This document shows, piece by piece, positions 1 to 13,969 of a stretch of 23,198 nt of DNA. Each line of letters begins with the position of its first letter. The first letter of the stretch is position 1. The translations under genes were made by a program, and so were the position numbers. Under the pieces are notes generated by a model, which saw only the letters and a list, made by a program, of their open reading frames with translations, was not told where the DNA came from and did not search any database. The DNA comes from a virus: IMG/VR virus record IMGVR_UViG_3300018481_000002, positions 1 to 23,198 of that record; one strand, given 5' to 3'.

Positions 1-486
1 AACCCGTTCAACGCGGTCGCTACCTTCACGGCCTTCCGTGACGCTGCACCGCCCGAGCCGGTGATCCTGCACCGCGACCGGACTTCCATCTCCTACACCG
101 CCATCGAGACGTTCTCTCACGAACAGTCCAACGATGACACTGGAGGCGGCTACTACCCGGGCAAGAAGCAGGTCATCAAGCCGACCACGGACCTGGTCAG
201 CAACCTCCTTCTGGAGTGCTGCCCAGTGACGGAAGAAGACTTCCTTCACATGGCGGCCGGGAAGTTCGGGGTGTCACTACCGACTATTAAGCCGTACTTT
301 TTCGACGCCATGAGCCGTGGTGACTTTGAACGGACGTCTGGAAAGCCGCCGATCATCAAGTTCAAGTACGAGCCTGAGCCTGAGCAGACGTGGGAGGCGG
401 AGCACAACCTGCCTGAGCGTCGCCTGCCTGATGGTGCGACGGTGGATGATGTGGAGCTCTTCGAAGCTGCATCGGAACTCGTCTGA
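1..486 (+). CDS. C-terminal part of an unidentified protein with a winged-helix-like end (5' truncated by window)
   Basis: The frame is open from base 1, so the true start lies to the left; the GTG at 61 is in frame but has no reason to be the start. About residues 75-125 of the visible part read as a compact helical domain (TTDLVSNLLLEC, then VTEEDFLHMAAGKFGVS, then IKPYFFDAMSRGDFERT), which resembles a winged-helix or replication-protein C-terminus. The tail is acidic. The stop TGA at 484-486 overlaps the ATG of the next tiny gene by one base, so the two are probably translationally coupled and cotranscribed with the sigma factor. A role in DNA replication or regulation is only an inference; I do not recognise the family. 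Confidence 0.7.
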   Translation, partial: NPFNAVATFTAFRDAAPPEPVILHRDRTSISYTAIETFSHEQSNDDTGGGYYPGKKQVIKPTTDLVSNLLLECCPVTEEDFLHMAAGKFGVSLPTIKPYFFDAMSRGDFERTSGKPPIIKFKYEPEPEQTWEAEHNLPERRLPDGATVDDVELFEAASELV

Positions 487-572
487 TGTGTGACTGCAAG
501 CGTCACTGGGACCTGAGCCAGCCTTGCACATGCCCGTGCTCGCACACCGACCATGGTGACGGGCGAACATGA
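486..572 (+). CDS. 28-residue Cys/His mini-protein, doubly coupled
   Basis: This short gene fills the gap between its neighbours exactly. Its ATG (486-488) overlaps the preceding stop as TGATG, and its stop (570-572) overlaps the sigma-factor ATG as ATGA. The product starts MCDCKRH and contains CTCPCSHTDH, giving five Cys and several His in 28 residues, a pattern that would suit one bound zinc ion. Such overlaps at both ends are hard to get by chance and are typical of real phage genes. Function is unknown. It could act as a small zinc-finger modulator, or it could serve mainly to couple translation between its neighbours. Confidence 0.6.
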   Translation: MCDCKRHWDLSQPCTCPCSHTDHGDGRT

Positions 573-1141
573 TCAGCGACGGCTACGGCGATGAGTCTGA
601 GTTCGAGTCCTACGTACGGGACCGCGAACCTTTGCTGCGTATCCAGGCGTACGAGCGGATCCACCCTGACAACGTCCCCGATGCCGTCAACGAGGCCCGC
701 TACACCATCTGGGAGGTACTCCAGAAGCGTCCTGACGCTCCACCGGAGTACGTGCGGGCGGCGGCGAAGACACGCATCACCGAGGTCTCCATGCGGGGCA
801 ACTGGCTGGGTCAACCCAGTCAACGGGGAAAGCCTTCAGTTGACCCGCTCCGGCGTGCTGACAGGGACTCGTTCGATGACCCTGACTTCCTAGTCGAGGC
901 GTCTGCACCGGAGATTCTGGACACTCTGGAGTTGGCTTACCACGAGGGGCAGATACTGGAAGCGATCCGGACTCTTCCCAGGCGGCACCAGGAGTACGTA
1001 GTGTTGCGATTCTGGGGTGGTTGGACGCACGCAGAGCTAGCTCCGTTGATGGGTGTGAAGACCAACAACATGGCCCGGATGTGGACTGAGACGATCAAGC
1101 CGCTGCTGGCGGAGAGGTTGGCGCATCTTGCTGAGGTGTGA
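569..1141 (+). CDS. ECF-like RNA polymerase sigma factor
   Basis: The 190-residue product has the layout of a small sigma-70 family protein. Residues about 25-72 (AYERIHPDNVPDAVNEARYTIW...PEYVRAAAKTRI) match a region 2-like helical part. Residues about 128-183 (ILEAIRTLPRRHQEYVVLRFWGGWTHAELAPLMGVKTNNMARMW) match region 4, including the LP..H.EYVVLRF helix and an HTH that would contact a -35 element. The ATG overlaps the stop of the 28-residue gene. A strong terminator hairpin begins 8 bases after the stop. The likely role is to redirect host RNA polymerase to phage promoters, perhaps for late genes. Region 2 is weaker than region 4, so an anti-sigma or HTH regulator is the alternative. Confidence 0.75.
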   Translation: MISDGYGDESEFESYVRDREPLLRIQAYERIHPDNVPDAVNEARYTIWEVLQKRPDAPPEYVRAAAKTRITEVSMRGNWLGQPSQRGKPSVDPLRRADRDSFDDPDFLVEASAPEILDTLELAYHEGQILEAIRTLPRRHQEYVVLRFWGGWTHAELAPLMGVKTNNMARMWTETIKPLLAERLAHLAEV

Positions 1142-3116: not shown

Positions 3117-3396
3117 GAGGGCCGTGGAGGCGTTCGACTCGCTTCCAGCCGACAGTGAGGGCGAGAAGGACTATGAGGTTGGTCCTGCCAGAGTGGAGAC
3201 AGTGAACAACTTCGCCTCCTACCAGCGACCTGACTTCGCTGAGGTCCGGCTGTACATCGAGATCCCTGGCCAACGGGAGATCGAGATCGCTGACCGGGTC
3301 CCCATGGATCAGTTCGACATGGGACAGCTGGAAGAGCTGATCCGTGTCGTCACCAAGATGGGACTACTCCGCTTCTCGGACGTTGCCCAGAGGTGA
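3097..3396 (+). CDS. Hypothetical protein (99 aa)
   Basis: The ATG at 3097 follows AAGGAG (3085-3090) with a six-base gap, a better start than the in-frame ATG at 3082, which itself forms part of that site. The product is acidic. Its core is RPDFAEVRLYIEIPGQREIE, then IADRVPMDQFDMGQLEELIRVVTKMGLLRF, suggesting two strands and a C-terminal helix. The gene overlaps its upstream neighbour by 20 bases and its stop overlaps the GTG of the HNH gene. Function unknown. Confidence 0.65.
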   Translation: MGSTNSERAVEAFDSLPADSEGEKDYEVGPARVETVNNFASYQRPDFAEVRLYIEIPGQREIEIADRVPMDQFDMGQLEELIRVVTKMGLLRFSDVAQR

Positions 3397-3761
3397 AGTA
3401 CACCGGCCTGTCCGATGGGCTGCGCCGGGACATCAACGAACGCGACGGGAACCGATGTAGATGGTGTGGGTCCACCAACCAGGGAGTGGACCACCACCAC
3501 ATCGAGTACCGGAAGGGCGCATCCCATGATGTTCTGGAGAACCTGGTCAGCCTCTGTCGTCCCTGCCACGGTTTTGTGCATGGGACTCCCCGTCCATCTG
3601 GTGAGCGGATCAGCAAGGACGTTGCGCAGCAGGTGCTGTTCTGGGTCGTCTCCAACAGTGGCCGAGTCGGAACCAGCCGCTACCGGGCCCTCAAGCGGCG
3701 GTTTGTTCTGGAAGGTCTATGTCGCCACGGTCAGAAAAAGGACACATGCCCGTACTGCTAG
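3393..3761 (+). CDS. HNH endonuclease with C-terminal Cys/His knuckle
   Basis: The 122-residue product has a full HNH fold: C22-x2-C25 (CRWC), the catalytic D33-H34-H35-H36 strand (VDHHHIEY), N50 in the LENLVSLC segment, C55-x2-C58-H59, and H63. The four Cys would hold the structural zinc, and the DHH..N..H set would bind the catalytic metal for DNA cleavage. A second Cys/His group at the end (C110-R-H112 and C119-P-Y-C122) looks like an extra zinc knuckle. Small phage HNH proteins may support packaging or act as homing nucleases. This one is far from any visible terminase and overlaps a LAGLIDADG-type gene, so a homing or free-standing role is plausible. The start is GTG, overlapping the previous stop. 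Confidence 0.88.
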   Translation: MKYTGLSDGLRRDINERDGNRCRWCGSTNQGVDHHHIEYRKGASHDVLENLVSLCRPCHGFVHGTPRPSGERISKDVAQQVLFWVVSNSGRVGTSRYRALKRRFVLEGLCRHGQKKDTCPYC

Positions 3762-4256: not shown

Positions 4257-4712
4257 GTGACGGCAGCTCCGAAGAATCTCACGATCGAGCAAGGATCCAC
4301 CTTCGTGTGGGGCATGACCTTGCTGGATGTGGAGATCGACGTCGACGGCACAGAGACCGTCATCGGACCTCGCGACCTCACCGGCTACTCCGCCAGGATG
4401 CAGATTCGGCAGAAGCAGGGTGCTGAGATCCAGATCGACGCCAACACCACGAACGAGAAGATCGTCCTCGGTCGGGTTGCGTATGGCGACGACCCTGGTG
4501 ACGACGACCCTTCAAACGGGCGTCTGATGGTGGTCTTCACCGACGAAGAGTCCGATGTCTTCACGATCAAGAAGGGCGTCTACGACCTGGAGATCGTGGA
4601 CCCAGTCCCATCTCCTGCCGGGTACACCACCCGTATCGCCCAGGGCACCGTCACGATCAGCCCGAACATCACCCAGATCTTGCCGCCTACCGGCAACGAC
4701 GAGGTGCTCTGA
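4257..4712 (+). CDS. Minor tail or virion structural protein
   Basis: The 151-residue product begins with KNLTIEQGSTFVWGMTL and continues to DLTGYSARMQIRQKQGAE. This closely follows a widespread phage pattern ('i.qG.tf...l...d..g.p.dLtGYsarmqiR') in small beta-rich proteins encoded within tail-fibre or baseplate regions. The middle has an acidic loop (GDDPGDDDPSNG), and the end is again strand-rich (VYDLEIVDPVPSPAGYTTRI). The GTG start is placed where the conserved domain begins; the ATG at 4253 is in another frame. Its stop overlaps the next ATG (TGATG). It opens the virion block of eight same-strand genes. The role is inferred from family and position. Confidence 0.7.
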   Translation: MTAAPKNLTIEQGSTFVWGMTLLDVEIDVDGTETVIGPRDLTGYSARMQIRQKQGAEIQIDANTTNEKIVLGRVAYGDDPGDDDPSNGRLMVVFTDEESDVFTIKKGVYDLEIVDPVPSPAGYTTRIAQGTVTISPNITQILPPTGNDEVL

Positions 4713-4993: not shown

Positions 4994-5296
4994 ATGGCTA
5001 TCAAGATCACCCCGGGCAGCATCGAGTCGACTGGACATGTCCTCCTGACTGGCCCCATCACCGGAAGCGTGGAGTTGGAAGACGGCACCGTCGTCGACGT
5101 GACTCCAGGATTCATCGAGGTTGACCCCGACCTTGCCGACGAGATCGCCGACAAGATCGGCCAACGGTATGCAGCGGAGGGTCATCCCGATGATGTCGAA
5201 CTCGACCCTGAGACCGGTGAAATGGTCCAGCGAGAGTTCGTGTACGTCACGCCCGAAGAGCTCGCCAACTCCGGCGACGACACCAAGAAGAAGTAA
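4994..5296 (+). CDS. Virion-block hypothetical protein (100 aa)
   Basis: The ATG is preceded by GAGGAG at 4983-4988. The N-terminus (MAIKITPGSIESTGHVLLTG) leads into a strand-rich part with VELEDGTVVDVTPGFIEV. An acidic helix (DPDLADEIADKIGQRYAAEG) and a Lys end (DDTKKK) follow. No known catalytic motif is present. Its place between two tail-type genes, with no large gaps, suggests a minor structural or assembly role; this is inference from context. Confidence 0.6.
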   Translation: MAIKITPGSIESTGHVLLTGPITGSVELEDGTVVDVTPGFIEVDPDLADEIADKIGQRYAAEGHPDDVELDPETGEMVQREFVYVTPEELANSGDDTKKK

Positions 5297-5311: not shown

Positions 5312-5677
5312 ATGGCTCTCGCCTCTGTTACTGCCACGAACCAGGCCCTCAACGGCTTGGACGCGAGTGGTACCCCGACCAACCTGATGACCCACGTGTC
5401 GCTGCACACGGCGACCACGTCCACCACGGGTGCCGCCGAGGCTACCGGTGGCGGTTACGCCCGTCAGGCGTGCTCGTGGAACGCCGCGTCATCTGGTTCG
5501 AAGACGAACTCTTCGGCCTTGACGTTCACCACGTCTGGCGGCTCCGCGCACACCCACTTCGGCACCTGGTCGGCTTCGACCTCGGGCACCTTCGGCATCG
5601 GTGGCGCTCTGACGTCCTCGGTGACGGCTGTGACCATCACCGTTGCTGCTGGCGCACTCACGCTGTCTGCTTCTTGA
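5312..5677 (+). CDS. Phage tail-fibre family protein
   Basis: The 121-residue product carries, in order, MTHVSLHTATTSTTGAAE, GGGYARQACSWNAASSGSKT, SSALTFTTSGG, THFGTWSASTSGTFGIGGAL. This is the characteristic order of a common small phage tail-fibre or receptor-region family ('vsLHTadP..tGa.E..GGgYaRqa..w.aAs.gs..n...l.F...gg..t..g.w....gg.f...g.L'). It is Thr/Ser/Gly rich and probably all beta. The start has GGAT about 14 bases upstream, a weak ribosome binding site. The gene at 1344 carries a shorter related form. It is expected in the virion. Confidence 0.75.
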   Translation: MALASVTATNQALNGLDASGTPTNLMTHVSLHTATTSTTGAAEATGGGYARQACSWNAASSGSKTNSSALTFTTSGGSAHTHFGTWSASTSGTFGIGGALTSSVTAVTITVAAGALTLSAS

Positions 5678-5704
5678 TTTAGACGCACGTTCTAAGGAGG
5701 GGTG

Positions 5705-6325
5705 GTGGCCGACACCAAGTACAGCGCGCTGTCTGCGGCGTCGGCTTTGACCGGTGCTGAGGAGCTCGGCGTCAACCAGGGTGGAGTGTCGAAGAAGACC
5801 ACCACGGCGGACATCGCCGCCATCGGCGGGCCCACCACGGTCACGAAGGTGATGACGGCCACCCAGTCCAACAACACGACCACCCCAGCCGCCATCACCG
5901 AGTTCACGACGTCGCTTGACCCAGGGACCTACGAGGTCAAGGTGACGCTCATCTGGCAGGCCACAGGGGCGGCCACCACCGGGGCAGGCTTCTTCATCAA
6001 CTGCTCCGGTGGAACGGTCACGAAGAACGTCGGCCACGTCTACACCACCACCACCGGCACGACGGCGACGACCGGTGTCGCTGACCAGGCGACGGTGGCG
6101 GCCACCTTCCAGATGATCGAGGCTCGGGCCTGGCGAGCCAACAACACCGACCCAGGACCGTTCGCGGGTGTCGACACGCAGAGCGCTGACCAGCTTGCGA
6201 TCCTGGAGGCGGTGGTGGTCGTGACCAGCACGACCTCGATGCAGATCATGTTCGACAGCGAGGTGGCCTCATCCGCCATCGTCATGCAGATCGGCTCGAT
6301 CTTGAAGGTCATCGAGGCGGCATGA
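5705..6325 (+). CDS. Tail-fibre-like structural protein (206 aa)
   Basis: Two GTG codons stand in tandem (5702 and 5705). AAGGAGG (5694-5700) sits four bases before the second, which I choose. The N-terminus (KYSALSAASALTGAEELGVN followed by QGGVSKKTTTADIAA) is a typical phage fibre start of the form 'sLp.at.ltg.e.v.v.Q.g..kktt..di'. The rest is a Thr/Ala-rich beta domain (DPGTYEVKVTLIWQATGAAT, then a repeating TTTTGTTATTG loop), similar to C1q- or TNF-like jelly-roll ends of fibres. The stop overlaps an ATG (ATGA at 6322) that opens a frame ended by an amber codon. Confidence 0.7.
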   Translation: MADTKYSALSAASALTGAEELGVNQGGVSKKTTTADIAAIGGPTTVTKVMTATQSNNTTTPAAITEFTTSLDPGTYEVKVTLIWQATGAATTGAGFFINCSGGTVTKNVGHVYTTTTGTTATTGVADQATVAATFQMIEARAWRANNTDPGPFAGVDTQSADQLAILEAVVVVTSTTSMQIMFDSEVASSAIVMQIGSILKVIEAA

Positions 6326-6357: not shown

Positions 6358-7194
6358 GTGGCTACCCCGCCGACTTTCGTCGGGTGGTACACGTCGGCAA
6401 TCTGGTCCACCGCTGGCGGCGCGACGACGCGCACTACTACGTACTCTGGTCAAGCAGGCGACCGGATTGCTCTAGTCTTTGCCGCCGAGAACGCAGACTT
6501 CAACTTGGTCTCAATCGCCAACGATGGGGCGGCTCTGACGTGGACTCCGCAGGAAGTCCACGATCCCGGTGCTGCTGATCGACCATACGCGGGTATCTAC
6601 AGCTCCACGCTGGACACCACCCGCACCATCGTCGTCACGATTACCAAGAGCGGTCCCACGATGGAATGGGGCCTGGGCCTGTCCGTCTGGCGCGACTCCG
6701 ACGGATTCGGAGTCTCCGAGAAGGCCGACAACGCAGGTCTATCTGGGCAGCCAGCACTGACTATGGTCACCCAGCCGAACTCTGCTGTGGTGGCCGTCAA
6801 CTCAGACTGGAATGCCACCTCTGGATCCCGCACCTACCGCAACCCCTACACGTCCTCCGCCGTAGAGGACCTCTACGGCGGCACCATCGGCCTCCAGTAT
6901 GCGGTTGAGGTGTTCCACTACGCCGACACTGCCGCTGGTGGGTCTGATGTCATCGGTCTTACCGCACCGTCGACACAGCGATACGGAATCGTCGGCCTCG
7001 AAATCCTCGGTACCTCCACCCCTCTCGACCCAGGGTGGGGCAAGTACCTCCTGGAGGATGGGAGTGGCTACTACGAGATGGAAGGCACCACTGACGACTA
7101 CCTGCTCGACACTGCAGCGGCCGACCCTAACGGTCCTCGACCAAGGAATGTCTTCAAAAGTAACCCTGCATTGAACAGGTCTTTCAACTACTAG
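6358..7194 (+). CDS. Minor tail or fibre protein (278 aa)
   Basis: The product is a beta-rich protein with TYSGQAGDRIALVFAAENAD, ALTWTPQEVHDPGAADRPYA, TTRTIVVTITKSGPTMEWGL and FHYADTAAGGSDVIGLTAPS. This layout of an adhesion-like beta sandwich is common in phage fibre proteins. The C-terminus changes to GKYLLEDGSGYYEMEGTTDD and NVFKSNPALNRSFNY, possibly a small attachment motif. The GTG start has no clear ribosome binding site and lies three bases after an in-frame TAG, so expression may depend on restart or readthrough. AGGAG at its end serves the next gene. Confidence 0.7.
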   Translation: MATPPTFVGWYTSAIWSTAGGATTRTTTYSGQAGDRIALVFAAENADFNLVSIANDGAALTWTPQEVHDPGAADRPYAGIYSSTLDTTRTIVVTITKSGPTMEWGLGLSVWRDSDGFGVSEKADNAGLSGQPALTMVTQPNSAVVAVNSDWNATSGSRTYRNPYTSSAVEDLYGGTIGLQYAVEVFHYADTAAGGSDVIGLTAPSTQRYGIVGLEILGTSTPLDPGWGKYLLEDGSGYYEMEGTTDDYLLDTAAADPNGPRPRNVFKSNPALNRSFNY

Positions 7195-7203
7195 GAGAAG
7201 GTA

Positions 7204-7686
7204 ATGGCCAGCACAAGTGAAAGAATGTATGTAGTCCGGTCGGGAACGTCGGCTACAAACTCAACAACGGTCGCTCTGACTGCTGCTACCGCCAAGACGG
7301 TCGTGGGAGTGTTCGGTACGGCTGGCACGTCGATCTGCCTGAAGAGGGTGCGAGTGTCGTTCGCGTCGATCACCGCAACTGATGTGCCTGCGCTGGTGGA
7401 GGTCGGGATCACGACGGCTGCTGGAACTGTGGGCACATCGTTCACGCCAGTTCAGATGGTCGGCCATACCTTGGCTTCGGCGTGTTCGGCGGGCTACAAC
7501 TACTCCGGCGAGCCGACCTACAACCGGATTCTTGAGTCGACCTACGTGCCGGTCAACAACGGGCTCATGGAGTGGTGGTACCCGCTCGGTGAGGAGCCTC
7601 AGTGTGACCTCAGCCAGGGTCTTGGGATCCGGATCACCTCCCCTCAGGCTCAGAACTGCTTCGCTTCCCTGATCTACTCCGAGTGA
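7204..7686 (+). CDS. Virion-block structural protein (160 aa)
   Basis: AGGAGAAGG ends three bases before the ATG, and the gene follows the previous stop by nine bases. The product begins MASTSERMYVVRSGTSATNS and has an early strand-rich core (TTVALTAATAKTVVGVFGTA, CLKRVRVSFASITATDVPAL). It closes with the aromatic region NGLMEWWYPLGEEPQCDLSQ and IRITSPQAQNC. This pattern recurs in small virion-associated proteins encoded near tail fibres in actinophages, where it is expected to form a beta sandwich. The exact place in the virion is unknown. The next gene, the giant repeat protein, starts eight bases after its stop. Confidence 0.65.
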   Translation: MASTSERMYVVRSGTSATNSTTVALTAATAKTVVGVFGTAGTSICLKRVRVSFASITATDVPALVEVGITTAAGTVGTSFTPVQMVGHTLASACSAGYNYSGEPTYNRILESTYVPVNNGLMEWWYPLGEEPQCDLSQGLGIRITSPQAQNCFASLIYSE

Positions 7687-7694
7687 GGTAGCCG

Positions 7695-10600
7695 ATGGCT
7701 CGTTGGGGTCGGTCTTCGCCGATCCAGGCGAAGGTCGTACGGAAGCCCGCACCGCATGTTCCTTTGGCGGCGACCGGGACCGCTTCGCTGACCCTTTCGG
7801 GATCCGCGAAGCCCAGCATCCCGCTTTCCTTGGTGCCGAGCGATCTGTCGTCTGCAACCTGGCAGATCAACGGGATCGGTGCGTCACAGACGAGCACACG
7901 ACTGTCGTTTACCGAAGGCGGCGACGGTGCCGCGTTGGACACAAACTTCGAGGTGTGGAGCCTCGATGAGTCGCGGTTCTTTGCCAAGTTTGTTGATGTT
8001 CCTTCTATTGGTAGTGCCGTCATGGAGTTGTACGACGACACGGGCGACGCGCAGGTCATGTTCCAGGTCCACGACGATGCCATCTTGGAGGTCTGGAACG
8101 CCACTGGTCCGCTGACTTCGGTTGGGTGGGATCGAGCCAAGCCGTACCTGTCGATCCGTGAGACAGGCGGAACGATCTACTGGGAGCGCAGCCCGTCCGG
8201 GCAGCCCGGCACCTGGGAGACGGTTCATTCGACCGCCTCGATCGGACCGGTGCACTACCTTTGGAGCCCGTCGTTCCACGCCATCGGCTTGCCGTTCGTC
8301 GGCTTCTTCTGGGTCGAAGACGTCAACACTCCAGGTGCTGGTGGCGGCGCTGCCTCGGGTACAGGAAGCCTGACTCTCTCGGGTACTGGTGGCGCATCTG
8401 GACAGGTGTCTGGAACTGGCTCACTGTCCTTGTCGGGGACGGGTACCCCGCGAGCCGTAGCCGCTGCGACCGCTTCGTTGACGCTTTCCGGTACGGGAAC
8501 AGCGAGATCTCCAGCTGTCGGAACTGGATCTCTGTCTCTCTCCGCCACTGGTGGAGCGCGGGCGACGCTCGCTGGATCTGGATCCCTGTCTCTTTCCGCT
8601 GCCGTGGGGACAGGTGTAGCGGCAGTCTCTACCGGATCTGGATCCCTGTCTCTTTCTGGGTCTGGTGCAACAACCAGTCCTGCGGCGGCTACCGCATCCC
8701 TCGCCTTGGCGGGCACAGGTACCGCTGGTCACGCCACCTCAGGTACCGCTAGCCTTTCCCTCGCCGGATCCGGTGCCGCTGCATCCCCGACCACGGCGTC
8801 TGGTTCGCTTTCGCTGACCGGGTCCGGCGCTACTGCTGCTCGGGCCGTAGCGACAGGTTCCATCACCTTCTCGGCAACCGGTACCGCCCGCGCTACGGGT
8901 ATCGCAACTGCTGCCCTGACTTTGACGGGCACTGGTGTCACTGCCGCTGCTGCCGCCGCTTCGGCGTCGCTGACCCTGTCTGGGGCCGGGTTCGCGTCCG
9001 CCCTGATGGATGGTGGTGCTGCCGCCTGGATCGACCTCTTCGCGACAGCGGACACGAGTGTTCCTTCTGTTGCGACCGGATCGCTGACCCTGGACGCGAG
9101 CGGTAGGGGTACATACGAACCCGAGATTGTCGCCTACAGCGGCACCTTCGACACGGACTTGAGTGGGACAACTCATGGTGGTTCCGTCACCCATGACGGC
9201 ACTGTGGGTCGATCTGGGGTCGGTTCGGCCAGGGTGGATGAGTCCTCCATCTACTCGTCTTACCCCGCTTACGCCGTAGTGCCGGGGCGTAGGTATCAAC
9301 TGACGGCCTGGGCCAAGGGTGACGGGACGCCTGGGCAGACCGCCTACTTCGAGAGCTACTACCTCAACTCGTCAGCGTTCGACATCACGGCGTCCCTCCG
9401 GAGCGACGAACAAGAAGTCTCCGATACTGAGTGGACGCTGCTCACTGTCGACATGGGTCTGGTGCCTGCCGCAGCCGTCTATGTCTACTGGTACTTCGAA
9501 ACCGGCTCCGGAGTCGTATGGCTCGATGACGTTCGCGTCGTTGCGGTAGAGGAACTCGCGGTATCCGGAGACATCGATGGGTCCGGAACAACCGGTACGG
9601 CCAGCCTGACTCTGAGTGCAACCGGAACGGCTGAAGATGGCTCGCTGGAAGCAACAGGCACCGCGTCTCTGACCTTGAGCGGTTCCGGCGCACCGGTTTC
9701 AACGGGCGTCGGAACCGGTAGCCTGTCCCTCTCTGCGACTGGCACGGCGACTGTTCCGAACACAGCGACTGGTTCGCTGACACTGAGCGCAACTGGGACC
9801 GCTCAAGCGGCCACTACAGGATCCGCATCGCTGACCCTTTCGGGGACTGCCGGAGCCGGGTACGGCACCTCGGGCACCGCCTCACTCTCACTTTCGGGTA
9901 CTGGTGCTGCATCTGGACAGCCGTCCGGTACCGGTTCTCTCACGCTTACCGGTACCGGCCAGACCTCAACGGTTGTAACCGGGTCCGGATCTCTGACACT
10001 TTCTGGTTCAGCAGTCGCAGGCTACGCAGCCAGTGGCACCGGGTCGATCACCCTCAGCGGCACGGGATCCACATCTGGACAGGTGTCTGGAACCGGTTCG
10101 CTCACCTTGTCCGGTGCCGGTGCAGTATCCGCGACGGCTTCAGGCACCGGTTCGCTGACTTTGTCTGGTGCAGCTGTCGCTGGCCATGCCATCACCGGCA
10201 GTGCCGCACTGACCCTCAGCGGTACAGGCACCGCTGCAACCGTCGCCACCGGATCGGGAAGCCTCACACTCTCCGGAACGGGCGCAGGCACCACCCCCAC
10301 GACGGCGACCGCCAGCCTCACACTCTCCGGTACAGGGGCCACGGCGGCACCACAGGTAGGCACCGGCAACCTGACCCTGAGCGGGTCCGGCGCAGCGGGG
10401 TACGGAACCACCGGAACCGCATCGATCACCCTCTCCGGTGCCGGTAACGGATCTGGACGTGCGTCTGCAACGGCATCCCTGACCCTGGATGGCTCTGCTG
10501 AGCCTGAAACGGTCGTAACTGGGACTGGAGCTCTGCAGCTCACAGGAACTGGAGGAGCGGGGTACGGGACCCAGGCGACCGGCTCCCTCACCCTCTCCGG

Positions 10601-11876
10601 TGCTGGCGCTGTAGCCGCTGCAAGCGCCGCAACCGCCGAGATCGACCTCACGGGTAGCGGTTCGATCACTAGTGTCGCCGTTGACGGTCAGGGCGAACTG
10701 AACCTGTCGGCGTACTCCGGTACCGCCATCGCCATCGAAGGCACCGGCAGCATCACCCTCTCCGCCTCCGGTGACGAGGCGCAGGCAGCCCCCGAGGGCA
10801 CCGCAACCCTGGAACTGTCCGGCCAAGGCGCAGGCACGACCGTAGGTGCTGGGTCCGCAACCCTTGACCTGTCCGGATCGGCGGCTGTCAGGGCAGAAGG
10901 GTCCGCGTCCGGTTCGTTGTCACTGTCCGGGTCTGCCGGAGTATCCGCACCCACAGACGCAACCGCGTCGATCACCCTGACCGGATCCGCCAGCCTTGAG
11001 GGCTACTCGGCCGCATCAGGACAGGGATCGCTCACGCTCAGTGGTTCCGGCACGGCAGGGGCGTCCGCTACTGGACAGGCATCCATTTCGCTGTCTGGCC
11101 AGGGCGCAACCGCTACGACATCAGCCGGAACCGGCAGCATCAGCCTGCAAGGAAGCAGTCTTGTCGCTGGAAGAGCGGACGCATCCGGGTCACTGACCTT
11201 GAGCGGGTCCGCTGGTGTCAGCGCACGCGCGGTCGCTTCCGGTTCGATGGACCTGTCCGCTACCGGAACAGCAGTCCCCATCTTCGGTGTGATGGGAACG
11301 GGCAGCCTGAGCCTGAGCGGTACCGGTGGCGCGACCATCCAGACAGTCGGGTCCGCTTCTCTGTCCCTGAACGGAACAGGGCAGACCCGCACCCCGGTCA
11401 CAGGGTCCGGCGCGTTGAACCTGTCCGGAACAGGACAGGGACGCGCCCGCGCCGATGCCACAGCGGACATCAACCTGCTCGCCAGCGCCGGGGTGAGCGG
11501 ACGCATGGCCGCGAGCGGCAGCATCGTCCTCTCCGGTGACAGCGCTGTCGAAGTGGTCGTCACCGGGTCCGGCAGCATCACCTTGTCGGGCTCGGCAGCC
11601 GGTGAACAGGCAGACCGTCCCGCTGAAGGGCAGGCGAACCTGCTGCTCTTCGCGGCTTCAACAGCACAGGCTGCGTTTGCTGGTTTGGCAGACCTGTCCC
11701 TCAACGGGTACGCGCTTGTTGACGACGCGCACAAGGTGTGGACGGGCACGGGTTACCGTGACGCGGTCCTGCGTGGAACCTGGACTGGTTCCATTCCCGA
11801 TCCCTACTTGGCTGTGCGGATCCTGGGGCCGTACAACGGCACCACAGTCGACGAGGTCGAGATCGACTTCGTCTGA
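7695..11876 (+). CDS. Giant repeat virion protein: lectin-like domain, about 53 copies of an 18-residue beta repeat, inserted CBM-like domain
   Basis: The 1393-residue product has five parts. A basic N-terminus includes one repeat at about residues 27-37. Residues about 45-212 form a concanavalin-like beta sandwich (TWQINGIGASQTSTRLSF through PSFHAIGLPFVGFFWVEDV). A first block of GTGSLTLSGTG-type repeats spans about residues 220-470. Residues about 471-620 form an inserted jelly roll resembling a carbohydrate-binding module (RRYQLTAWAKGDG, TEWTLLTVDM, GSGVVWLDDVRVV). A second repeat block spans about 634-1345, and a non-repetitive cap (residues 1345-1393) ends in VDEVEIDFV. I count about 53 units of 17-20 residues by eye. 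It is the last gene of the virion block, so a long fibre or host-binding spike is the best inference. There are no Cys residues in the repeats. Confidence 0.8.
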   Translation: MARWGRSSPIQAKVVRKPAPHVPLAATGTASLTLSGSAKPSIPLSLVPSDLSSATWQINGIGASQTSTRLSFTEGGDGAALDTNFEVWSLDESRFFAKFVDVPSIGSAVMELYDDTGDAQVMFQVHDDAILEVWNATGPLTSVGWDRAKPYLSIRETGGTIYWERSPSGQPGTWETVHSTASIGPVHYLWSPSFHAIGLPFVGFFWVEDVNTPGAGGGAASGTGSLTLSGTGGASGQVSGTGSLSLSGTGTPRAVAAATASLTLSGTGTARSPAVGTGSLSLSATGGARATLAGSGSLSLSAAVGTGVAAVSTGSGSLSLSGSGATTSPAAATASLALAGTGTAGHATSGTASLSLAGSGAAASPTTASGSLSLTGSGATAARAVATGSITFSATGTARATGIATAALTLTGTGVTAAAAAASASLTLSGAGFASALMDGGAAAWIDLFATADTSVPSVATGSLTLDASGRGTYEPEIVAYSGTFDTDLSGTTHGGSVTHDGTVGRSGVGSARVDESSIYSSYPAYAVVPGRRYQLTAWAKGDGTPGQTAYFESYYLNSSAFDITASLRSDEQEVSDTEWTLLTVDMGLVPAAAVYVYWYFETGSGVVWLDDVRVVAVEELAVSGDIDGSGTTGTASLTLSATGTAEDGSLEATGTASLTLSGSGAPVSTGVGTGSLSLSATGTATVPNTATGSLTLSATGTAQAATTGSASLTLSGTAGAGYGTSGTASLSLSGTGAASGQPSGTGSLTLTGTGQTSTVVTGSGSLTLSGSAVAGYAASGTGSITLSGTGSTSGQVSGTGSLTLSGAGAVSATASGTGSLTLSGAAVAGHAITGSAALTLSGTGTAATVATGSGSLTLSGTGAGTTPTTATASLTLSGTGATAAPQVGTGNLTLSGSGAAGYGTTGTASITLSGAGNGSGRASATASLTLDGSAEPETVVTGTGALQLTGTGGAGYGTQATGSLTLSGAGAVAAASAATAEIDLTGSGSITSVAVDGQGELNLSAYSGTAIAIEGTGSITLSASGDEAQAAPEGTATLELSGQGAGTTVGAGSATLDLSGSAAVRAEGSASGSLSLSGSAGVSAPTDATASITLTGSASLEGYSAASGQGSLTLSGSGTAGASATGQASISLSGQGATATTSAGTGSISLQGSSLVAGRADASGSLTLSGSAGVSARAVASGSMDLSATGTAVPIFGVMGTGSLSLSGTGGATIQTVGSASLSLNGTGQTRTPVTGSGALNLSGTGQGRARADATADINLLASAGVSGRMAASGSIVLSGDSAVEVVVTGSGSITLSGSAAGEQADRPAEGQANLLLFAASTAQAAFAGLADLSLNGYALVDDAHKVWTGTGYRDAVLRGTWTGSIPDPYLAVRILGPYNGTTVDEVEIDFV
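8353..9105 (+). repeat. First block of 54-bp coding repeats (about 12-13 units)
   Basis: Each unit encodes a variant of G-T-G-S-L-S-L-S-G-T-G plus a variable 7-9 residue linker. Synonymous codons differ widely, so DNA identity is low except in places: GGATCTGGATCCCTGTCTCT followed by TTC is exact at 8574-8596 and 8634-8656. Confidence 0.85.
9592..11720 (+). repeat. Second block of 54-bp coding repeats (about 39 units) with a three-unit higher-order pattern
   Basis: The units continue after the inserted domain. In part of the block the linkers cycle in threes: an AGYG- or AGHA-type linker, then an SGQ-type or similar, then a TVVT-type or similar (clearest from about 9840 to 10600). Part of the array therefore probably grew by copying of three-unit segments. 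ATCTGGACAGGTGTCTGGAA recurs near 8395 and 10073. Confidence 0.75.
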
Positions 11877-12206: not shown

Positions 12207-12527
12207 TCAGGCTGGAGGCTCCTCGAAGAGAGCCATTTCCAGCCATGCGTCGACCGTCCTCACGGGACGGCCAGTGTCGTTGGCGACGTACGTCTCCAGT
12301 CTCGCTCCTCGCGAGTCCTCGTAGCCGTCCAGGACAGCCACACCTTCGGAGTTGAGCACGTCGATGACACCTAGTTCTCGATACTTCTCTTGGGTCAGTC
12401 CTTCCTGCTGTCGGGTTGGGTTCAACACTTCAAACCCAGCAGCCGTCAGCACTCTCTCGGCCCGGTTGAACGCTTTGAAGTTCAGCCCAGCTCGACCTGA
12501 CATAGGTCCGGCGATGTAGAGGATCAT
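12207..12527 (-). CDS. DUF4406 / nucleoside 2-deoxyribosyltransferase-like protein
   Basis: The 106-residue product starts MILYIAGPMSG, the hallmark 'iYiAGPM.G' of DUF4406, followed by NFKAFNRAERVLTAAGFEV and LNP. Later VIDVLNSEGVAVLDGYEDS and then GARLETYVANDTGRPV match the conserved 'D...l..cd.v.lL.gw..S.GA..E...A...g.pv' segment. E78 is the probable catalytic Glu by analogy with deoxyribosyltransferases. The ATG overlaps the preceding stop as TGATG, so the long in-frame N-terminal extension is rejected. Two stops in tandem (TGATGA) end the frame. Members may act on nucleosides or nucleotide-derived molecules; activity here is not shown. It is the last gene of the minus-strand unit. Confidence 0.8.
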   Translation of the reverse strand: MILYIAGPMSGRAGLNFKAFNRAERVLTAAGFEVLNPTRQQEGLTQEKYRELGVIDVLNSEGVAVLDGYEDSRGARLETYVANDTGRPVRTVDAWLEMALFEEPPA

Positions 12528-13969
12528 CAGAGGCAGACGTTGTAGCGCCGCTCGTAGTCCCAGTCCCAGCCGCCACCGTCGTCGCAGTACTCGTACCCGT
12601 TCGGGTCGTAGCACGTCACTTGACCCGGTGCTCCACAGTTGGACGGAGGTGGGTTGTCACCTCCACCGCCAGTGGGCGGCTCAGGGCAGACGTAGTAGCC
12701 GAGAGCTGCGTCATAGACCATCTCGCTGTCCTCACAGGCAGCGGGCGGGTCCTCCGGGTAGTTCGGCGTACAGCCACCGCTGAACCCACAGCCCGTGTTC
12801 GGACCGGCCACGAACGGGTTGCCATTCGTGTCCTCGCACCGACGGTCCACCGGGTCCCAGGTTCGGTAGGGAGCAGGCGCGTACGTGGTGCAGTTCGGCG
12901 TGTAGCAGTTGACCGGAGAGATCGCGTCCCGGATCTGCCCGTTGGTGCACGGCTGCAAGTTGCACATGCCGTGGTTCCACACACCCCACTGGCAGTTCGG
13001 GAACGTCTCCGGTGCCACACAGGACAGGCCGTAGAACCACTTGTAGCCCGGCGCGCACTGCGTCCACGAGTAGTACTCGCAGCCACCGAGAGTGGGGCAG
13101 CCCTGAGCGTCGTAGGTGACCACCGGACGCACCGACGGATCACCGAGATACGGCGGAATGGGTCCGTCGTCCACGATATTTGCGTCGCTGAAGTTGGCTT
13201 CAGGTCCGCCGTACCACCCGCCGATGTTCGTGTCCGAGCGCGGGTTGATGTAGGCGATGCGGTTGCCGTCCTCGGTGACGGAGTCGAACGACATCGGGTC
13301 GGCGTTGGACTTCATCCAGAACTCGGTGGTCCAGCGAGCCGGAAGGACGTTCCGAACCACGCGATACCAGACACGCTCCTCCTTGGGAACGCGGTACTCG
13401 CGGCACACACCACCACCACTACCGGGGCCTGTGCCGTCCTCTGCCTTGGGGACGAAGAACGCAACGTGGGGGCCAGGGGTTGGAGATCGAGGGTAGTCGC
13501 GCATCTTCTTGTCGTCGGTGAGCCAGGTGACGAAGTGCACGCCCTGGAATGAGCCGGGCTGGCCCTCGGCGCTGTGGAGGTGGCAGTACTTGAACCGGAA
13601 CGGTTTGAACTTGTCCGGCTTGTCGCCGTTGGGGCAGTACCGGTAGAACATGGTGTCGCCAGCCATGAGGTACGCCTCCATCTCCAGGTAGCCGTTTGGG
13701 ACGTTGGAGGCGGGCACGATGTAGTCATACTTCGAGTTGGAACCCCGAGTGTGGTACTTGTTGATCCGCTTCGACATGCACTCCTTCCAGGTACTGGTCG
13801 AAGCTCCACCAGTGGCGAGATCACCCGATGGCCCGGAGTTGTCGGTGCCGGTGCGCGAGGCAGCGGTCTGCTCTTCCGAGTCGATGCCTTCTGCGTTGGC
13901 CGTTGTTGCGACGCCGAACAGCACGAAGCAGGTCGCGAGCGCTGTGAACAGCGCTGTAAGCCGTCTCAT
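12527..13969 (-). CDS. Secreted Cys-rich protein (480 aa), unknown function
   Basis: Residues 1-26 are a clear Sec signal peptide: MRR, then a hydrophobic core (ALFTALATCFVLFGVA), then cleavage after ANA. The mature part has 22 Cys. Four are spread over residues 64-189 in a globular N-terminal domain (WYRVVRNVLPARWTTEF, SDTNIGGWYGGPEANFSD). Eighteen are packed into residues 291-479, in a Pro/Gly/Asn-rich region (QGCPTLGGC, CQWGVWNHGMC, CGFSGGC) that suggests several small disulphide-linked modules. It would be folded outside the cytoplasm. The ATG overlaps the stop of a membrane protein gene and its own stop overlaps the DUF4406 ATG. It has no lytic motif that I recognise. Lysogenic conversion, superinfection exclusion or a virion surface role are inferences. 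Confidence 0.7.
   Translation of the reverse strand: MRRLTALFTALATCFVLFGVATTANAEGIDSEEQTAASRTGTDNSGPSGDLATGGASTSTWKECMSKRINKYHTRGSNSKYDYIVPASNVPNGYLEMEAYLMAGDTMFYRYCPNGDKPDKFKPFRFKYCHLHSAEGQPGSFQGVHFVTWLTDDKKMRDYPRSPTPGPHVAFFVPKAEDGTGPGSGGGVCREYRVPKEERVWYRVVRNVLPARWTTEFWMKSNADPMSFDSVTEDGNRIAYINPRSDTNIGGWYGGPEANFSDANIVDDGPIPPYLGDPSVRPVVTYDAQGCPTLGGCEYYSWTQCAPGYKWFYGLSCVAPETFPNCQWGVWNHGMCNLQPCTNGQIRDAISPVNCYTPNCTTYAPAPYRTWDPVDRRCEDTNGNPFVAGPNTGCGFSGGCTPNYPEDPPAACEDSEMVYDAALGYYVCPEPPTGGGGDNPPPSNCGAPGQVTCYDPNGYEYCDDGGGWDWDYERRYNVCL

What the first reader, a model, noticed from the sequence alone, without database searches (positions are those of the whole stretch)
7695..11876. Giant fibre-like protein with about 53 copies of an 18-residue beta repeat and a three-unit higher-order pattern
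Seen: the gene at the end of the virion block encodes about 53 units of the type GTGSLTLSGTG plus a variable linker, split into two blocks by a jelly-roll insert and preceded by a lectin-like domain. In the second block the linkers cycle in threes (AGYG, SGQ, TVVT types). Codons for the same residues vary strongly, as if recombination between copies were selected against. Known: phage fibre proteins often carry beta repeats and sugar-binding domains. Inference: it is a very long, Cys-free, glycine-rich surface fibre that binds the host envelope, and its copy number may vary between relatives. I know of no described protein with this repeat.
Basis: partly seen in the sequence, partly recalled or inferred. 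Interest (0 to 1): 0.75.

Follow-up and report, generated by a model that had tools for sequence, protein, structure and literature searches.

The report
Phage adhesin with 18-residue beta stalk
The gene is real and encodes a large phage attachment protein whose stalk is built from 54 short repeating segments; the same kind of stalk, gained and lost one segment at a time and almost always next to a small known phage-fibre gene, turns up in many unrelated phages, so it looks like an exchangeable, length-adjustable arm for holding on to bacteria.

Summary
Observation partly confirmed. Window 7695-11876 (+) is one intact 1393-aa, Cys-free ORF with 54 copies of an 18-residue unit (1 + 14 + 39; 43 exactly 18 aa). 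Even columns are small/apolar, odd columns Ser/Thr; lag-18 identity is 0.37 against at most 0.18 in shuffles. The three-unit cycle is not significant. Codons are flatter than in neighbouring genes, but copies share more DNA than synonymous shuffles predict, so 'selected against recombination' is not supported.

Best explanation: a virion adhesin whose array is a two-strands-per-unit beta stalk carrying weakly recognisable sugar-binding domains, working with the PF23140 (phage GP4 gp80-type) fibre gene at 5312-5677. AF2 on six in-register units gave pLDDT 75 (two of five models); structural neighbours are beta-solenoids, none significant. Of 17 viral loci with a gp80 relative and more than 1 kb downstream, 14 have an 18-residue array downstream on the same strand (10 of 13 without seed loci), against 2 of 2287 control ORFs, both this phage's own. 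Arrays differ between relatives by exactly 18 and 36 residues. The sister phage has unrelated fibre genes there. Cultured Microbacterium and Gordonia phages have 20-22-residue analogues after gp80. A new variant of a known kind.

The parts
7695..11876 (+). giant repeat-array adhesin, 1393 aa, Cys-free
7785..7838 (+). solitary N-terminal repeat unit (aa 31-48)
7839..8339 (+). N-terminal globular domain (about aa 49-215), possibly ConA/LamG-like; weak phrog_14065 match (7e-5) to aa 141-184
8367..9134 (+). array block 1, 14 units (aa 225-480)
9135..9602 (+). globular insert (about aa 481-636), sub-threshold CBM_4_9 match; phrog_3493 minor tail protein E=0.0016
9603..11744 (+). array block 2, 39 units (aa 637-1350)
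11745..11873 (+). C-terminal end domain (about 43 aa)
5312..5677 (+). gp80-type fibre protein (PF23140, 50.8 bits against cut-off 27; PDB 8jou E=0.009); 66-74% identical in unrelated array-bearing phages
4994..5296 (+). small protein with a 'GHVLLTGPI' motif, immediately upstream of gp80 here and in other cassettes
6358..7194 (+). separate gene whose product is homologous to the N-terminal domain fused to the array in L075 (31% over 236 aa, E=1e-18)
5702..6325 (+). small gene between gp80 and the adhesin
7204..7686 (+). 160-aa gene directly upstream of the adhesin (8 bases between its stop and the adhesin's ATG)
4257..4712 (+). phrog_1084 protein, conserved in sister phage G001 and marking the syntenic fibre locus

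Best explanation
The protein is a virion-borne adhesin of a 147.7-kb tailed phage. The 18-residue units form a regular beta stalk, most likely a beta-solenoid with one unit per coil and two strands per unit, small and leucine residues inward and Ser/Thr outward. The stalk spaces and displays globular domains (an N-terminal domain and a CBM-like insert) that bind host envelope sugars. It belongs to a modular fibre cassette with the GP4 gp80-type fibre protein encoded 2 kb upstream, which probably links it to the particle. The array changes length by gain and loss of whole units, and the cassette moves between unrelated phages. Shown: the repeat, carried domains in relatives, the gp80 association, unit-sized indels, the cassette in unrelated backbones, its absence from the sister phage. 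Inferred: solenoid fold, contact with gp80, sugar binding, presence in the virion.
For: Repeat and alternation. AF2 on six in-register units: pLDDT 75.4, pTM 0.67, about two strands per unit. Foldseek PDB list is mostly beta-solenoids (FapC, CsgA, ice-binding proteins, bactofilin), none at E<=0.001; top viral model TM 0.80, E=0.005. gp80 relatives: 14 of 17 testable loci have an array downstream, 10 of 13 without the seed loci; controls 2 of 2287 ORFs, both G000's own. gp80 is 66-74% identical where backbones share next to nothing else detectable. L075 against L066: gaps of exactly 18 and 36 aa. Carried domains: LamG in L079 and L121, GDPD in L109, Gly_rich_2 in L120. Second array with Fn3 in the same phage at 138287-139927. 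A protein of GP4 structure 8JOU is described as a fibril joining an adhesin to the tail collar (PMC13243795).
Against: Only two of five AF2 models are confident; a 10-unit run with a gappier alignment gave pLDDT 43.7. No PDB fold match is significant. The N-domain has no Pfam family and the insert is below cut-off. No virion proteomics. The sister phage and the other terminase relatives searched show no array (many are fragments), so it is accessory.
Confidence: 0.65

Rival explanations
1. The array is the shaft of a homotrimeric fibre (triple beta-spiral or triple beta-helix, as in adenovirus or T4-type fibres), the units of three chains interlocking.
For: Phage fibres are usually trimers (general knowledge); an alternating L-x-L with a Gly turn also suits triple beta-spirals; single-chain AF2 of 10 units fails.
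Against: Six in-register units fold as one chain in two of five models; no trimeric shaft among the Foldseek matches listed.
Confidence: 0.25
2. The array is a flexible, mostly disordered Gly/Ser/Thr/Ala linker between binding domains.
For: Low-complexity composition; three of five AF2 models at pLDDT 40 or below.
Against: Period conserved at 18 across distant phages, Leu or Phe at column 4 in all 43 exact units, strict even/odd alternation, indels of whole units.
Confidence: 0.12
3. The array is a relative of the DUF2807 'head GIN' adhesin beta-helix of bacteria.
For: Weak recurrent Pfam hits (5 of 13 rows, best E=0.14) and a weak profile hit to 3pet (E=0.098).
Against: hhalign to a DUF2807 alignment: probability 0.16%, no better than the reversed array.
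Confidence: 0.03

Closest known systems
GP4 fibre I module (gp80, PF23140, PDB 8JOU) of Ralstonia podophage GP4
   Same: The cassette contains a PF23140 gene; in GP4 a protein of PDB 8JOU forms a fibril joining an adhesin to the tail collar (PMC13243795).
   Different: The array adhesin itself matches no PDB sequence at E<=1; the host phage is large and encodes a tape-measure protein.
LSH1 gp34-gp36 extra structural module (PMC13243795)
   Same: Accessory adhesin with poorly predicted beta-helical spacer plus an 8JOU-like fibril gene; present in only half of related phages.
   Different: No 18-residue GTGSLTLSG array is described there; the carried domain is a lyase-like beta-helix.
Cultured actinophage adhesins after gp80: Microbacterium phages Magritte gp27 and Dewdrop gp66, Gordonia phages Suerte gp28, Upyo gp27, Kuwabara gp32
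   Same: Encoded next to or almost next to a gp80-type gene, repeat-built, two carry GDPD domains.
   Different: Repeat period about 20-22 residues and different motif; annotated hypothetical or minor tail protein.
Curli CsgA / FapC beta-solenoids
   Same: Short Gly-rich repeats with two strands per unit; appear in the Foldseek list.
   Different: No significant match in fold or sequence; no Curlin repeat match in Pfam.

Membership tests
PF23140 (GP4 gp80 fibre I), for gene 5312-5677 | profile match above curated cut-off | tested here: met
   50.8 bits against 27; PDB 8jou_a E=0.0089
CBM_4_9 (PF02018), for the insert | profile match above curated cut-off | tested here: not met
   21.2 bits against 25.9, E=4e-4
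Concanavalin/LamG, for the N-domain | Laminin_G profile match | tested here: not met
   none at E<=1; clear Laminin_G_3 in relatives L079 and L121
DUF2807 head GIN beta-helix | profile-profile similarity above a reversed control | tested here: not met
   score 13.4 against 13.7 for the reversed array
Curlin-type beta-solenoid | Curlin repeat profile match | tested here: not met
   Curlin repeat not among the Pfam matches of the protein or of 13 array stretches
Curlin-type beta-solenoid | strand-turn-strand coil per repeat | tested here: inconclusive
   AF2 two of five models; Foldseek not significant
Triple beta-spiral fibre shaft | homotrimer with interlocked strands | not testable with these tools
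   no multimer prediction available

The most novel reading that the evidence does not exclude
An undescribed family of single-chain beta-solenoid stalks in phages, with the 18-residue coil as the unit of length, moving between unrelated phages as a cassette with gp80 and swapping sugar-binding or envelope-cleaving domains; its outward Ser/Thr ladders, which recall ice-binding solenoids, may themselves bind polysaccharide.
Probability: 0.25. Interest if true: 0.65.

Novelty: new variant of a known kind. Interest (0 to 1): 0.5.

Why it matters
It gives a sequence signature for a class of phage adhesins that sequence searches miss: low-complexity filtering probably hides the arrays, and tblastn with the intact protein found nothing in 50,697 phage records. 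It also predicts a physical partner (the gp80-type fibre gene). Because unit number changes in whole steps, it offers a testable case of a phage tuning the reach of its attachment arm, and cultured actinophages with analogous gp80-adhesin pairs exist.

Tried and rejected
tblastn of the whole protein, N-domain and insert against named phages: no match. The search for related loci with whole protein, N-domain, insert and the second array protein's N-part: nothing confirmed. Genome collection: three pattern hits; the motif scan showed no array ORF at them. DUF2807 homology: rejected by reversed control. Three-unit higher-order repeat: not significant. Anti-recombination codon choice: sharing is above, not below, expectation. 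First AF2 run (10 units, gappy alignment): no confident fold. Homology of gene 7204-7686 with the L079 gene before its array: E=0.11, not supported. tblastn with the window's gp80 protein against named phages: none; the divergent L123 homologue opened the link to named actinophages.

Full report
What is there. The ORF at 7695-11876 (+) is intact and encodes 1393 aa without Cys. It starts with one lone unit (aa 31), then a globular domain, a 14-unit block (aa 225-480), a globular insert, a 39-unit block (aa 637-1350) and a short end domain. The 54 cores include 43 units of exactly 18 residues. The column pattern is S-[LI]-T-L-S-G-T-G-variable(7)-[GA]-[TS]-[GA]; even columns are 88% small/apolar, odd columns 24%, the pattern of a beta strand with two unlike faces. 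Lag-18 identity in block 2 is far above shuffles.

Permuting the 18 consecutive exact units of block 2 gives no significant three-unit period in the linkers (p=0.14 at lag 3, 0.71 corrected) and only a marginal one over whole units (0.07 corrected). Codon usage in the array is flatter than in neighbouring genes, with A-ending Gly/Ala/Thr/Val codons at 0.24 against 0.03-0.10 in the terminase and three other tail genes, and 0.12 in the protein's own non-array parts. The second array of this phage shows the same shift (0.21 against 0.07); in L075 and L079 the arrays have lower third-position GC, with a smaller or no rise in A-ending codons over the same protein's other parts. But identical codons and shared k-mers between copies are above, not below, synonymous shuffles, so there is no sign of selection against homology; what is seen fits residual common origin. 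Why the codons are flat is unexplained; relief from very high GC is one guess.

Where else it occurs. G000 is a 147,685-base virus record whose two ends carry the same reading frame, suggesting a terminal repeat. It has a second array gene, 138287-139927, Fn3 plus about 11 units, at the end of the main tail module, and one unit in 136617-137348. A three-unit DNA pattern finds six stretches in 2.9 million viral contigs, and three in the genome collection of which none proved to be an array ORF. The sister phage G001 (terminase 75% identical) keeps the neighbour gene phrog_1084 but has unrelated fibre genes at the locus; none of 26 terminase relatives has a two-unit pattern, though many of these records are fragments. 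L075/L076, L066 and L079 are one other lineage and L077 a third; G000, L075, L079 and L077 share the 4994-type gene, the gp80-type gene (66-74% identity) and the array, and next to nothing else detectable in the stretches held. The L066 and L078 fragments show no gp80 match. In L075 the domain that is the separate gene 6358-7194 here is fused to the array.

Link to gp80. Searching viral contigs with the gp80 alignment gave 21 loci. Four end within 0.9 kb. In 14 of the other 17 a protein with at least five chained units lies downstream on the same strand; 10 of 13 if the seed loci L103, L105, L107 and L112 are set aside. The same test on 2287 control ORFs finds only the two G000 arrays. Five cases found only by this criterion were then read by eye. 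Payload domains differ: LamG, GDPD, Gly_rich_2. Arrays hold from about 6 to 54 units in these proteins, and L075 against L066 shows gaps of exactly 18 and 36 residues, direct evidence of whole-unit gain or loss.

Named phages. A divergent gp80 relative matches 711 phage records, mostly Mycobacterium and Gordonia. Of 12 inspected, none has the strict 18-residue array, but in Magritte, Dewdrop, Suerte, Upyo and Kuwabara the gene directly or almost directly after gp80 is a repeat protein with period about 20-22, two of them with GDPD domains. In mycobacteriophages such as PhelpsODU the gene upstream is a repeat-bearing minor tail protein. So the broad kind, gp80 fibre gene plus repeat-built adhesin, exists in cultured phages.

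Fold. With six in-register units AF2 gives about two strands per unit at pLDDT 75, in two of five models. Foldseek lists mostly beta-solenoids without significance; the best viral model has TM 0.80, E=0.005. A longer run with a gappier alignment failed. I hold the solenoid at about 55-60%, a trimeric shaft at about 25%. Solenoid geometry (about 0.48 nm per coil, general knowledge) would make the two blocks about 7 and 19 nm long.

Function. PF23140 is the GP4 fibre I family; a protein of the GP4 8JOU structure is described as a fibril between adhesin and tail collar, and LSH1 has a comparable three-gene accessory module with poorly predicted beta-helical spacers (PMC13243795). I infer that the array protein is the adhesin of such a module. 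Virion incorporation, contact with gp80 and sugar binding were not tested.

Noticed in passing
G000:138287-139927 (L007:16287-17927): Second array protein in the same phage: Fn3 domain plus about 11 units of the same repeat, at the end of the main tail module.
   Followed up: partly
G000:49245-50123 and 30461-31318: Ku-like and ATP-dependent DNA-ligase-like ORFs, judged by eye from the translation only.
   Followed up: no
window 569-1141: Sigma-70 region 4 protein (PF08281, 29.5 bits), possibly a phage sigma factor.
   Followed up: no
window 3393-3761: HNH endonuclease (phrog_7370 E=5e-12), with a homologue in sister phage G001.
   Followed up: no
window 12527-13969 (-): 480-aa Cys-rich protein with an apparent signal peptide and no family match, near the adhesin on the opposite strand.
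   Followed up: no
L079:4630-5508 and L075:6416-9322: GH16-type glycosidase and DMFA2_C/PKD protein encoded near the arrays, possible envelope-acting enzymes.
   Followed up: partly
arrays in the window and L007; L075 and L079 in part: Lower third-position GC in array codons than in most neighbouring genes; reason unknown.
   Followed up: partly
G000 ends (window 1-249 and 147044-147682): Same reading frame at both ends of the record, suggesting a terminal repeat or circular map.
   Followed up: no
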